From positions 1 through 64,000 of the forward strand of contig CAMMRL010000004.1 of the NCBI GenBank assembly GCA_946499275.1: a stretch of DNA of 64,000 bases, read 5' to 3'. The DNA is from an uncultured Clostridia bacterium (GTDB lineage Bacteria; Bacillota; Clostridia; Oscillospirales; Acutalibacteraceae). Within the stretch, counting starts at the first letter, position 1; each line of letters starts with the position of its first letter. Below, one piece after another: positions 11,031 to 22,359 of the stretch. A model generated the notes under the pieces. It worked only from the letters and a program-made list of their open reading frames with translations, had not been told where the DNA came from and made no database searches. Position numbers and translations under genes: made by a program.

Positions 11031-12044
11031 TTACATGCCGGTCAAGCCGGAGCTTTCAATGCTTTCCGAGAAGTTCTTCTGAAGAAGGATGTACAAAATG
11101 ACCAACGGGATAATTGACAGCAGGCAAATGGCCTGAACTTGAGTCTGGGCCGTATCGATCGTCATTCCAAGGCCCAAATTGTTAATGTTCTTCAGCCGCT
11201 CCTGGAACTGGGCGAGGGACATGGAAATCGTCTCCATTTTGCTGCCCAGGAACATGGACGGCGTGTAATAATCATTCCAGTTCCACACCACCGAAAGGAG
11301 GACTACTGTCAGTACAATGTTTTTCGTCGTCGGCACCACAATCCGCAGGAAGGTGCTGTAAGCATTGCAGCCGTCGATGGAGGCCGCTTCCTCCAACTCC
11401 TTCGGAAGGCTGAGGAAGAACTGCCGGTAGATAAAGATATATAAACCGGCGCGCAGACCCATCGCAAAGATAGCCGGAAGCATCGTTACCAGCGGCGTAC
11501 CGATCAAATTGATTTCAATACCCGCGCCGCTGATCATATTGATCAAAGAAATAATCCCTAATGGGTCAAAGAACCGGTACTGCAGATACATGGACGCTGT
11601 CAGTGTCTGCTGCGGAACAATAATGGTCAACACGACCAGAGCAAAGACCAAGCCGCGCCCGCGGAAATTGAAACGAGCCAGGCCGTAAGCCACCAACATA
11701 CAGCTTACCGTCGAAATCAACGCCGGAATAATGGCTACCAAAAAGGTATCCAGCGCCACCTTCCCTAGGTCCACCAGCTGCATGACAACCCAGAAATTGT
11801 CCAACGTCAATTCCTTCGGAATCCAGATAACCGAAGGATCGTAATATTCCAGCGCCGGCTTAAACGCATTACTGATCATGTAAAAAACCGGGTACAAAAT
11901 AACGAAACACAGCCCAATCAAAAGGGCATGGCGGAAAATAATAAACAGGATATGCTGCGGCTTATGGACACGGACAAAATGCTGTGCACTCTCCTTCGCT
12001 TTCTGCCGGTTGTCCGCCGAAAAATAGCTCTTAATCTTTTCCAC
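11031..12044 (-). CDS. Carbohydrate ABC transporter permease, MalG-type (type II pair)
   Basis: EAASIDGCNAYSTFLRIVVP EAA loop; C-term ESIESSGLTGM; GTG start with RBS GGGGGGA. Confidence 0.92.
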   Translation of the reverse strand: MEKIKSYFSADNRQKAKESAQHFVRVHKPQHILFIIFRHALLIGLCFVILYPVFYMISNAFKPALEYYDPSVIWIPKELTLDNFWVVMQLVDLGKVALDTFLVAIIPALISTVSCMLVAYGLARFNFRGRGLVFALVVLTIIVPQQTLTASMYLQYRFFDPLGIISLINMISGAGIEINLIGTPLVTMLPAIFAMGLRAGLYIFIYRQFFLSLPKELEEAASIDGCNAYSTFLRIVVPTTKNIVLTVVLLSVVWNWNDYYTPSMFLGSKMETISMSLAQFQERLKNINNLGLGMTIDTAQTQVQAICLLSIIPLVILYILLQKNFSESIESSGLTGM

Positions 12045-12057
12045 TTACGATCCCCCC

Positions 12058-19384: not shown

Positions 19385-19398
19385 AATGATCGCTCTCC

Positions 19399-22359
19399 TC
19401 AGCCGTTCAGACTAAATTCTTCCCGCTTACGCTCGATTTCCTTGTTGATCTCCTTGTTGTACTTGTACAGGGTTTCCCTTTCGTTTTGATTCTTCAAAAC
19501 AACCGCGCGGAACGCAAAGGAAACGTTGCGGGTGATGTAGTAGTTACCGGGAATCTGGGGTACATCGGTAACTGCCTGCCACTGCTCTTTCAGATTATCC
19601 GCCTGTGTCTTCGTCCAAGGCAATTGATCAAAGGCAGCTACGTTTGCTGTCGGGAAACGCGCGGCCGCGCCCATGTTCTGCTCAATTTCCACACCAAAGC
19701 GGCCCTGCGTCTCCGTACTGATCCACCATTTCAGAAATTCATACGCATTGTCCGGCTGTTCCGTGTTCCCAAGGATGACAGCCGCCGTACCGGTAGCCGT
19801 CTCCGTATTGTTCACTGTACCGTCTTCATTCACCGTGCCGGGAATCGGGGCGATCGCCCACAAGCCTTTCAATTCTGGAGCCGACACATTCAGGGTATTT
19901 GCCTGCGTATAAGGCATAATTGCCATCGGCATTTCGCCGGTGCGGAAACGGCTGAAAAAGTCGAACACCAGCGGCAGGCTGTATTTCGCGTACAAATCGG
20001 TCCAAGTCTGGAAAGCTTCCAGGGCTTCCGGCTGATCAAACGTTGTCTTGCTCAGGTCATCCGTGTAGAACTGCCCGCCGTTCTGATAAAGTAACGCTTC
20101 GAATATGCGTTGTGCTTCCGGGATACCCACTACCATATTGCTCAGCTGCAGAGTGGAAATCAGCACGTAAAAATCATCCCAGGTCTTCGGCGGTTCCAAT
20201 CCCAATTCCTCAAATACATCGGTGCGATAGAACAGCATGTCATAAGCCTGCGTTTCCGGCAGCGCATAATAATGCCCGTTGTATTCGTATGGAATCATCG
20301 CCGAATCCATAAACTGGCTGATAACCTCTTCAAAGTCGTCGAACTGGTCCAATGGAACCAGCGCATTACGCATTGCCAGGTTAACCGGCGTATCTTTGGA
20401 AACGAAAACCGCGACATCCGGCCCTTTCCCGGCCAAGGTCGCCTGGATCAAGGTAGTGGAGTTGGTGACCAGGCTCATGTTCACGCCAATGCCCGTTTCC
20501 GGGGTGAACGTATCGTCGATCAGACGTTTCAACAGCTGCGCCTGGTCGCGCCCGGCGGTAACGCCGCCCGTCGTCAACGCCGTCAAATCACCGGTGCTCA
20601 TCCAAACTTCCAGCGGCTTGCCGTTCGTGCCGGAAGCAGAGCCGCCGATCGAGTTATAGTCAATCACGAAAGACCCATAAAACATTTTGGCGCGATAGGC
20701 GACCTGGCTGAAGAAATTGGCTCCGGCGGTGGGTTCCTTCTGGTCCGGGGAATATACAACGAAATAATCCATTTCCAGGGGCTGCTCCCGCTGATCCAAA
20801 ACCCAAGTTGCCAGCGAGCTGACGTTGCCGCGATAACTTTCGAGCCGTTTTGCAATCGTATCCGGCCGTTTCCTCAGCTTATTCAGCATAGCGATCATTT
20901 CGGACAAGAGGGACGCCGCCGTACCATTGCTGCCGGACAACTCCTTGATTTCATCAAGAGCCGTTTGCAGGCTCGCTGCGATATCCTCAAAGCCTTGCAT
21001 CAGGCCCGGTATTTTCTTGTCAAGCAGGAAGTCGCGGTTGGTATCGATCGTAATACGGTTCGAGTCGGCGTTGGAACCGGTGATCATGATGATCTGGCGA
21101 TACCACTGGTTCAGTTCCGCCACCGCTTCCTCCACACGACGGAGGACATCGGAAACGTCGCCCGTCACCGAGCGGAGCGTCATCGTATGCTCGCCCGCCG
21201 TCAGGTAAATCTTCAGGGGCTCTTCGTTTTCATCCTCCAAAGTCTGCATATACCAGCCGTCCTTGAAGGGGAACTGGATATTGCCCAGGCTATCATAGGG
21301 GATTTCCCCGTCTATGTAAAGCTCACGGGTGCTGTACATGCCTCGTTTCACATTCTGGCGGACTTTGAAAGAAAGATAATAATACCCGTCTTCCGGAACG
21401 GAAATTTTCCAGGTGATCTCCTGGCCCACGGTATCCCATGTATCCTTGCCCACTGTGTTATACAAAGTGGCGTACGGATTGGAAGGCGACATGCTGACGC
21501 TGCCTTTGTCATAGGTTGGATACAGGAGGTTGGAGGATTTGCTGTCCATCAATTCGGCTTCGTATTTTTGATAATAGCCGCTGGAATCCTTAGCCCCCTG
21601 CGCTTCCCATTCCGCTAGCTTATCGGCATAACTCGGCGTATCCACGGGGGGATAAAACTGGATTTCCGCAAGCGCAAAGGCTTCCATCTGCATTTCCAAA
21701 GTGATGGTATGGGTCCCTTTCTCCAGATAAAACTGGAGCGGCCCATTATAAGCGCCTTTGGAATCGATCGTCTCATAATTCTGCCATTCGAAAGTCTCTA
21801 CCGCATCAGGACGGACTTCATTCCCTTGAGAATCAATCTCAAACCGGCCGTCCGTTTCTTTCTCCGGATCTACCTGGTCGCGGTAAAGGCGGGGATACGC
21901 CAGCGAATCCGCGTTGGTGTAGGGAAGCTTCCCATCAATCAGCATCGCCAGCTGGATGTCGTTGCCCTTGAGCTCAATCGGCGCGTACAAAAGCGACATA
22001 TTGTACAGGCCGGTCTCCGGCACCTCAATCTGCCAAGTCAGTTTGCCTTCCTGCGAATCCCAAAGCACCACATTGTCTTTTCCCTGATAACTTCCAATCT
22101 CGACATTGGCGCCTTCATCTTTCACAAAATCAGCCGCATTAACCGTCAGCTTGCCGGTAGGCCGTGCAGCATCCTTATATTTCTGCAAATAATCGTAATA
22201 GCTCGGCGTATCGGCGCTTTCGGTACCCTCCTGGCCCGCCTGCTCCACGACGACATCCGCCGTCGTGTCCGCATCCTCTGCCGCCAGCGTAGGCAACGCC
22301 ATGGTAGAAAGCAACGCCAACGCACATACCGTTGCTAACAATCGTCTCGAAAACTTCAT
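19399..22359 (-). CDS. Giant multidomain extracellular SBP with N-terminal CBM-like sandwich domains and a helical linker
   Basis: 986 aa; signal peptide without lipobox cysteine; two GLYNMSLLY/GYYYLSFKVR-type domains, then an SBP domain (DDTFTPETGIGVNM...GPDVAVFVSKD). Confidence 0.82.
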   Translation of the reverse strand: MKFSRRLLATVCALALLSTMALPTLAAEDADTTADVVVEQAGQEGTESADTPSYYDYLQKYKDAARPTGKLTVNAADFVKDEGANVEIGSYQGKDNVVLWDSQEGKLTWQIEVPETGLYNMSLLYAPIELKGNDIQLAMLIDGKLPYTNADSLAYPRLYRDQVDPEKETDGRFEIDSQGNEVRPDAVETFEWQNYETIDSKGAYNGPLQFYLEKGTHTITLEMQMEAFALAEIQFYPPVDTPSYADKLAEWEAQGAKDSSGYYQKYEAELMDSKSSNLLYPTYDKGSVSMSPSNPYATLYNTVGKDTWDTVGQEITWKISVPEDGYYYLSFKVRQNVKRGMYSTRELYIDGEIPYDSLGNIQFPFKDGWYMQTLEDENEEPLKIYLTAGEHTMTLRSVTGDVSDVLRRVEEAVAELNQWYRQIIMITGSNADSNRITIDTNRDFLLDKKIPGLMQGFEDIAASLQTALDEIKELSGSNGTAASLLSEMIAMLNKLRKRPDTIAKRLESYRGNVSSLATWVLDQREQPLEMDYFVVYSPDQKEPTAGANFFSQVAYRAKMFYGSFVIDYNSIGGSASGTNGKPLEVWMSTGDLTALTTGGVTAGRDQAQLLKRLIDDTFTPETGIGVNMSLVTNSTTLIQATLAGKGPDVAVFVSKDTPVNLAMRNALVPLDQFDDFEEVISQFMDSAMIPYEYNGHYYALPETQAYDMLFYRTDVFEELGLEPPKTWDDFYVLISTLQLSNMVVGIPEAQRIFEALLYQNGGQFYTDDLSKTTFDQPEALEAFQTWTDLYAKYSLPLVFDFFSRFRTGEMPMAIMPYTQANTLNVSAPELKGLWAIAPIPGTVNEDGTVNNTETATGTAAVILGNTEQPDNAYEFLKWWISTETQGRFGVEIEQNMGAAARFPTANVAAFDQLPWTKTQADNLKEQWQAVTDVPQIPGNYYITRNVSFAFRAVVLKNQNERETLYKYNKEINKEIERKREEFSLNG

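What the first reader, a model, noticed from the sequence alone, without database searches (positions are those of the whole stretch)
11031..22359. Candidate undescribed system: NHL/TPR-YIP1-DUF5696 module sandwiched between two complete permease pairs (locus A copy)
Seen in sequence: giant SBP - MalF/G(I) - NHL/TPR - YIP1 - DUF5696 - MalF/G(II) - lipoprotein SBP, all on one strand, with several short gene overlaps or gaps. Known: a CUT1 importer normally needs one MalF/MalG pair and one SBP. Inference: two importers plus an extracellular propeller/TPR membrane protein and a YIP1 membrane protein may form one larger uptake or sensing machine.
Basis: partly seen in the sequence, partly recalled or inferred. 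Interest (0 to 1): 0.85.

Follow-up and report, generated by a model that had tools for sequence, protein, structure and literature searches.

The report
Conserved double sugar importer on scaffold
Gut, soil and hot-spring bacteria of the Firmicutes carry, up to about twenty times per genome, one and the same set of genes that joins two complete sugar pumps to a giant sugar-binding protein, an outer-surface propeller/membrane protein and an enzyme-like protein; one copy is already known to be switched on by plant xylan, but nobody appears to have recognised the set as one system or tested how it works.

Summary
All eight genes are present in the stated order on one strand in window copy A, and again in copy B. 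The window's genome carries ten such cassettes, 20-39% identical to each other in DUF5696, all with every part. All 80 best named loci elsewhere show the same order as far as their contigs reach. Among 300 Bacillota genomes, full-length DUF5696 and NHL-YIP1 occur in exactly the same 28, and all 28 also have the giant SBP. NHL/TPR and YIP1 are fused or split at least 14 times, which suggests contact. All four permeases keep ATPase-coupling loops; the genome has one MsmK/UgpC-type ATPase. In some families the cassette is split: one free giant-SBP+permease-I unit and many NHL-YIP1-DUF5696-permease-II-SBP units. DUF5696 folds like GH129/GH101 but appears to lack their catalytic acids. Exact match of a published operator shows that the single Caldicellulosiruptor bescii copy is the xylan degradation locus operon xloEFG-X-GH129-axoFGE, which is xylan-induced. 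So there both pumps serve one substrate class from one operon. A conserved two-importer polysaccharide-uptake system is well supported; a physical supercomplex is not shown.

The parts
19399..22359 (-). Copy A giant substrate-binding protein (986 aa): signal peptide, about 540 aa with CBM35-like and helical stretches, then SBP_bac_1 domain
   Evidence: Pfam; family alignment; lipobox in only 2 of 107 relatives
18440..19384 (-). Copy A permease F1 (MalF/UgpA type), module I
   Evidence: Pfam, NCBIfam; EAA loop intact
17486..18403 (-). Copy A permease G1 (MalG/UgpE type), module I
   Evidence: Pfam, NCBIfam; EAA loop intact
15904..17448 (-). Copy A NHL propeller + TPR protein, N-terminal signal, C-terminal TM helix; probable start ATG 17364/17358
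   Evidence: Pfam; start; AF2 model of fused copy B homologue, mean pLDDT 89; Foldseek hits TRIM71/TRIM2 NHL and Pizza propellers
15290..15907 (-). Copy A YIP1-family membrane protein, about 5 TM
   Evidence: Pfam (E 4.4e-14); TM counts; fused to NHL/TPR in copy B and other loci
13006..15336 (-). Copy A DUF5696 protein, GH129/GH101-like fold; probable start ATG 15276
   Evidence: Pfam (E 1.6e-176); AF2 mean pLDDT 90; Foldseek 5opq/8rzk/5wzn
12058..12969 (-). Copy A permease F2 (MalF/UgpA type), module II
   Evidence: Pfam; EAA loop
11031..12044 (-). Copy A permease G2 (MalG/UgpE type), module II
   Evidence: Pfam; EAA loop
9577..10929 (-). Copy A lipoprotein substrate-binding protein SBP2 (variable part)
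   Evidence: Pfam; lipobox AFAGC; median identity 0.22 between loci
9500..9545 (-). Terminator-like stem (19 pairs) and T-run behind SBP2
   Evidence: pattern match only
22894..22921 (-). Promoter-like site TTGACT-16-TATAAT before the giant SBP
   Evidence: pattern match only
49776..52652 (-). Copy B giant substrate-binding protein
   Evidence: Pfam
48842..49783 (-). Copy B permease F1
47958..48845 (-). Copy B permease G1
45917..47980 (-). Copy B NHL/TPR-YIP1 fusion protein (687 aa)
   Evidence: Pfam; AF2 model
43633..45930 (-). Copy B DUF5696 protein
   Evidence: Pfam (E 8.9e-145)
42737..43636 (-). Copy B permease F2
   Evidence: profile match to other F2; no Pfam hit
41772..42740 (-). Copy B permease G2
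52716..54188 (-). Copy B SBP2, at the 5' end instead of the 3' end
   Evidence: Pfam

Best explanation
It is a conserved two-importer polysaccharide-uptake system of Firmicutes, made of two functional modules. Module I (giant SBP with CBM-like front part + permease pair F1/G1) is the constant part. Module II (NHL/TPR-YIP1 membrane protein, DUF5696, permease pair F2/G2, exchangeable SBP2) is the substrate-specific part. Secreted or surface enzymes coded next door cut a polysaccharide. DUF5696, most likely a glycan-binding protein derived from a GH129/GH101-type hydrolase, and the giant SBP hold the chain or its fragments at the membrane. The NHL/TPR protein on its YIP1 membrane base gathers these outer parts over the permeases, and both permease pairs, driven by one shared MsmK/UgpC-type ATPase, carry oligosaccharide products of the same polysaccharide inside. 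Shown here: gene content, order, co-occurrence, split/fusion pattern, coupling loops, single ATPase gene, predicted fold of DUF5696 and of NHL-TPR-YIP1. Shown in the literature for the C. bescii copy: one xylan-induced operon, and dependence of growth on xylan, cellulose and pectin on MsmK. Inferred: scaffold role, glycan holding by DUF5696, and joint working of the two pumps.
For: Ten of ten complete cassettes in the genome, deeply diverged (DUF5696 20-39% identical) yet unbroken. Among the paralogues every pair of parts co-diverges (Mantel r 0.56-0.93, all p<=0.006). 80 of 80 named loci have the same order as far as contigs reach. 28 of 300 Bacillota genomes have NHL-YIP1, exactly the 28 with full-length DUF5696; all 28 have the giant SBP, and the 3 further genomes with it hold it on contigs of at most 4.3 kb that end inside the block. 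NHL lies next to DUF5696 in 117 of 125 cases. Shuffled loci keep all members (L173, L183). NHL/TPR and YIP1 fused/split at least 14 times on the tree. Families f58/f72 carry one free module I plus several module II copies. F1/G1 are most conserved (median 53/49%), F2/G2 less (38/39%), SBP2 least (22%). EAA loops intact in all four permeases. One UgpC/MsmK-type ATPase gene in the genome. C. bescii: operator ACTAGTAAACGCTTACGATA (PMC12285236) lies 150 bp before the giant SBP; operon xloEFG-X-GH129-axoFGE-xyn... induced 4- to 100-fold on xylan and msmK deletion growth defect (PMC8579813). Neighbours of the window genome's cassettes are varied sugar enzymes (GH106, GH4, GH32, GH65, GH36, GH20).
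Against: No physical contact between any parts is shown except what fusion of NHL/TPR with YIP1 suggests. The two pumps could work side by side without a shared scaffold. Module I can stand far away from module II on the chromosome, so gene order does not demand a fixed assembly. Lone DUF5696 genes of another subfamily exist without importers (L175, L176, L188, L189). The loss of catalytic residues rests on a remote profile alignment.
Confidence: 0.6

Rival explanations
1. Two independent CUT1 importers for different products of one polysaccharide (for example different chain lengths or side-chain types), merely co-transcribed with a surface enzyme (DUF5696 as a true GH) and an accessory membrane protein. 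This is how the Caldicellulosiruptor copy is described (XloEFG and AxoFGE).
For: Published naming as two separate CUT1 transporters (PMC8579813); each pair has its own SBP and intact EAA loops; module I can stand alone (L201-L205).
Against: Does not explain why the pairs, NHL-YIP1 and DUF5696 are never found without each other at genome level, or why module I alone is a single locus, in f72 among housekeeping genes, beside many module II copies. Acidic residues of GH129/GH101 are not conserved in DUF5696.
Confidence: 0.3
2. Module I is not a nutrient importer for the polysaccharide but an ATP-driven helper: giant SBP + F1/G1 do mechanical or exchange work (loading, unloading or extracting glycan chains held by DUF5696/NHL) for the substrate-specific importer of module II. 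(A sub-case of the two-module picture; its confidence overlaps with that of the best explanation.)
For: Module I is the most conserved part across substrates; one free copy stands beside seven or so module II copies in f72/f58 genomes; giant SBP is not a lipoprotein and has a long CBM-like front part.
Against: Genomes such as this one carry one module I per module II, co-diverging with it, which suggests substrate- or partner-specific tuning; its SBP domain is an ordinary SBP_bac_1.
Confidence: 0.15
3. A surface sensor: the NHL/TPR-YIP1 protein and DUF5696 report polysaccharide presence to the cell, with the permeases as co-receptors.
For: Propeller and TPR domains are interaction modules; SBP/permease co-sensing is known in other systems (general knowledge).
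Against: No signalling domain, kinase or regulator is part of the conserved core.
Confidence: 0.05

Closest known systems
Xylan degradation locus (XDL) of Caldicellulosiruptor/Anaerocellum bescii: operon xloEFG-X-GH129-axoFGE-xynF-xynE-xynD-xyn10A-xynX-xynB (PMC8579813, PMC12285236)
   Same: Homologous block with identical order: giant SBP-F1-G1-NHL/YIP1-DUF5696-F2-G2-SBP2; single copy, xylan-induced
   Different: Window copies sit beside other enzymes (GH106/GH4; DUF4434 and beta-helix) and so probably serve other glycans; the papers treat the block as two separate importers plus unknown 'X' and 'GH129'
CUT1 carbohydrate ABC importers using the multitask ATPase MsmX/MsmK (PMC7658222, PMC5730181)
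   Same: SBP + MalF/MalG-type permeases with EAA loops, no ATPase gene in the operon, one UgpC/MsmK-type ATPase in the genome
   Different: Two permease pairs and two SBPs, plus NHL/TPR-YIP1 and DUF5696 as constant parts
GH129 / GH101 glycoside hydrolases (5wzn, 5opq, 2zxq)
   Same: Predicted fold of DUF5696: beta-sandwich, TIM barrel, C-terminal beta domain
   Different: About 12% identity; catalytic Asp and Glu positions not acidic
Bacteroidetes SusCD-type utilisomes
   Same: Works like: lineage-expanded, multi-copy, substrate-specific surface glycan uptake units with binding proteins and enzymes (comparison from general knowledge)
   Different: No shared protein family seen; Gram-positive, ATP-driven importers instead of TonB-dependent SusC

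Membership tests
CUT1 ABC importer | MalF/MalG-type permease pair with EAA coupling loop | tested here: met
   Both pairs; Pfam/NCBIfam; EAA loops in 108-114 homologues of each
CUT1 ABC importer | Extracellular substrate-binding protein | tested here: met
   SBP_bac_1 in giant SBP, SBP_bac_8 in SBP2
CUT1 ABC importer | MalK/UgpC/MsmX-type ATPase | tested here: met
   None in cassette; single UgpC-subfamily ATPase in genome, 484.9 bits vs cut-off 432
CUT1 ABC importer | One permease pair per importer operon | tested here: not met
   Two pairs in 98 complete loci; split into separate modules in f58/f72. This limits 'it is one ordinary CUT1 importer', not 'it contains CUT1 importers'
GH129/GH101 | Three-domain fold with TIM barrel | tested here: met
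   AF2 pLDDT 90, Foldseek E 3.8e-32 to 5opq
GH129/GH101 | Catalytic Asp/Glu pair in the barrel | tested here: inconclusive
   Equivalent columns 568 and 612 not acidic in nearly all sequences, but the alignment is remote (hhalign probability 87%)
GH129 | Match to Pfam Glyco_hydro_129 (PF11308) | tested here: not met
   DUF5696 matches only PF18952; PF11308 finds none in the own genome
XDL transporter block | Same gene order around X and GH129-like gene | tested here: met
XDL transporter block | Xylan as substrate | tested here: inconclusive
   No xylanase family found next to copy A; neighbours GH106, GH4, nucleoside hydrolase
SusCD utilisome | SusC/SusD homologues | not tested
   Gram-positive genome; no such genes among cassette parts

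The most novel reading that the evidence does not exclude
The two importers, NHL/TPR-YIP1, DUF5696 and the giant SBP form one membrane supercomplex with a constant ATP-driven half (module I) and exchangeable substrate-specific halves (module II): a Gram-positive counterpart of the Bacteroidetes utilisome with two ABC engines, a type of assembly not described before.
Probability: 0.33. Interest if true: 0.92.

Novelty: new variant of a known kind. Interest (0 to 1): 0.72.

Why it matters
Gram-positive gut and soil bacteria are usually thought to take up glycans with simple one-SBP, one-permease-pair importers. A strictly conserved two-importer system with two constant proteins of unknown role, expanded to 10-20 copies per genome in chicken-gut Avimonas, would change that picture and give a marker for predicting which glycans these uncultured bacteria eat. 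Because exactly one copy sits in the genetically tractable C. bescii, inside a characterised xylan-induced operon, the role of each part can be tested directly.

Tried and rejected
Chance clustering: rejected by 10/10, 80/80 and 28/28/28 co-occurrence. Recent tandem duplication in one lineage: rejected, copies are 20-39% identical and spread over many families. 'Giant SBP occurs without the rest': the three apparent cases (G136, G179, G113) are contigs of 3.1-4.3 kb cut inside the block; about 430-aa SBPs of family f29 look like an ordinary, different SBP family. 'DUF5696 always with importers': not quite, four lone copies of another subfamily in the window's own family. A whole-length hhalign against a single GH129 sequence failed in global mode; local mode aligned. 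Three literature searches for the unit by family names found nothing; the link came only through locus identity with C. bescii. Plasmid, phage and metagenome collections were not searched. AlphaFold of complexes was not available.
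Full report
WHAT IS THERE. The stated interval holds, on the minus strand and in the order of transcription, a 986-aa substrate-binding protein, a MalF- and a MalG-type permease, an NHL/TPR protein, a YIP1 protein, a DUF5696 protein and a second MalF/MalG pair; a lipoprotein SBP follows at 9577-10929. Genes overlap or follow closely, with 101 bp before the last SBP. The best promoter-like match lies before the first gene and a 19-pair terminator-like stem behind the last (patterns only). Probable starts differ from the longest ORFs: NHL/TPR at 17364 or 17358, DUF5696 at 15276 behind AAGGAGG. 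A second copy runs from 41772 to 54188, with NHL/TPR and YIP1 fused into one 687-aa protein and the small SBP at the 5' end.

THE GENOME. The window's assembly (2.51 Mb, 94% complete) has ten DUF5696 genes, all ten in the same cassette, and ten full-length giant SBPs and ten NHL genes to match. The paralogues are old: DUF5696 20-39% identical, giant SBP 25-51%, and their parts diverged together (Mantel r 0.56-0.93, p at most 0.006). Nearest named relatives are Candidatus Avimonas from chicken (75-80% identity), so this is very likely an Avimonas gut genome. Cassettes of this genome sit beside different sugar enzymes: GH106, GH4, GH32, GH65, GH36, GH20, GFO/IDH dehydrogenases, DUF4434, beta-helix and CBM35 proteins. 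Relatives in the genus carry up to 20 copies.

ELSEWHERE. The 80 best named DUF5696 loci (Paenibacillus, Cohnella, Lederbergia, Halalkalibacter, Caldicoprobacter, Mahella, Lachnospiraceae, Oscillospiraceae and others) all show giant SBP-F1-G1-NHL-YIP1-DUF5696-F2-G2 as far as their contigs reach; SBP2 lies at either end. Over 300 Bacillota genomes of at least 90% completeness (the own genome included), full-length DUF5696 and NHL-YIP1 occur in the same 28 genomes, with no genome having one without the other; all 28 have the giant SBP (Fisher p about 1e-38, computed on 27 genomes and ignoring relatedness; NHL-YIP1 in 16 of 212 genera). Three more genomes have the giant SBP only on contigs of 3.1-4.3 kb that end within the block. 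In 19 genomes NHL and DUF5696 are neighbours in 117 of 125 cases. Two rearranged loci, L173 and L183, keep all members in a new order, and L212 reorders module II. Lone DUF5696 of another subfamily occurs in four relatives (L175, L176, L188, L189).

TWO MODULES. In families f72 and f58 the block has come apart: one giant SBP-F1-G1 unit stands alone, in f72 among housekeeping genes, while many NHL-YIP1-DUF5696-F2-G2-SBP2 units stand without it; a few whole cassettes remain in the same genomes (L161, L165, L166, L172, L201-L205, L212-L218). F1/G1 are the most conserved parts (median 53/49%), F2/G2 less so (38/39%), SBP2 least (22%). Hence a constant module I and a substrate-specific module II. 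This split is the strongest hint that the two importers are not equal twins.

PARTS. All four permease families keep the EAA loop that grips the ATPase. The cassette has no ATPase gene; the genome has one UgpC/MsmK-type ATPase besides a PotA-like one. SBP2 is usually a lipoprotein (74 of 103), the giant SBP (2 of 107) and DUF5696 (14 of 122) usually are not. The NHL/TPR protein has an N-terminal signal and a C-terminal TM helix with basic tail, so propeller and TPR should lie outside; YIP1 has about five TM helices. They are fused in 41 and separate in 77 loci with at least 14 changes on the tree, a repeated-fusion argument for contact. AF2 gives mean pLDDT 89 for the fused protein and 90 for DUF5696. 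DUF5696 matches GH129 structures best (5opq, 8rzk, 5wzn; E down to 3.8e-32), then GH101 and GH36. Aligned with a GH129 sequence (hhalign, probability 87%), the catalytic Asp falls on column 568 (Ser/Ala/Gly/Met in 78 of 78) and the Glu on column 612 (mostly Gly); invariant residues are instead D228 and E674, with D638 96% and D/E579 99%. A glycan-binding pseudo-hydrolase is the better reading, but not proven.

LINK TO KNOWN BIOLOGY. One searched genome has a 2,919,718-bp chromosome with two small contigs. Its single copy is preceded, 150 bp before the giant SBP, by the exact 20-bp XynR operator published for the XDL (Athe_0174) of C. bescii (PMC12285236), and is followed by GH43, GH10, GH39, GH10, esterase and GH39 genes. 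It is therefore the operon xloEFG-X-GH129-axoFGE-xynF-xynE-xynD-xyn10A-xynX-xynB of PMC8579813, induced on xylan (10- to 100-fold proximal, 4- to 9-fold distal genes) under XynR and AraR; deletion of msmK severely impairs growth on xylan, cellulose, pectin and cellobiose. In C. saccharolyticus the XDL transporters (Csac_2412, Csac_2417-2419) respond to xylan-rich biomass (PMC5658599). The published view is two separate importers, an unknown X and a GH129; the conserved unit, its split modules and its expansion are not described in the papers I could search.

VERDICT. A conserved two-module, two-importer polysaccharide-uptake system is well supported. A single physical machine is plausible (about one in three) and directly testable in C. 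bescii.

Noticed in passing
window 36966-39533 (-) and 39406-40446 (-): PFL-like protein without a Pfam Gly_radical match; C-terminus reads RIHGTF where the other PFL-like protein of the window (28480-30744) has RVGGF; a radical-SAM activase-like gene lies next to it. Possibly a divergent or degenerate glycyl-radical enzyme.
   Followed up: partly
window 7240-9399 (-): 719-aa protein with no Pfam match between the GH106 gene and SBP2 of copy A; possibly an unrecognised enzyme of the copy A pathway.
   Followed up: no
contig C4 65777-66675, about 1.8-2.7 kb beyond the window's end: Fragment matching only the N-terminal part (profile 17-316) of the giant SBP, with internal stops: a decayed copy or a free CBM-like protein.
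   Followed up: no
L011 12695-18181; L014 12646-15393: In two cassettes of the same genome, two to three genes, most without Pfam match (one of 1013 aa with a CBM_4_9 match), are inserted between F2 and G2.
   Followed up: partly
L175, L176, L188, L189: A DUF5696 subfamily standing alone in relatives of the same family, without any importer part; its W451 and D638 positions differ from the cassette form.
   Followed up: partly
G046, G089, G125, G155 (family f29): About 430-aa SBPs matching the SBP half of the giant SBP at E 1e-89 to 1e-97 but without F1/G1 next to them in the stretches read.
   Followed up: partly
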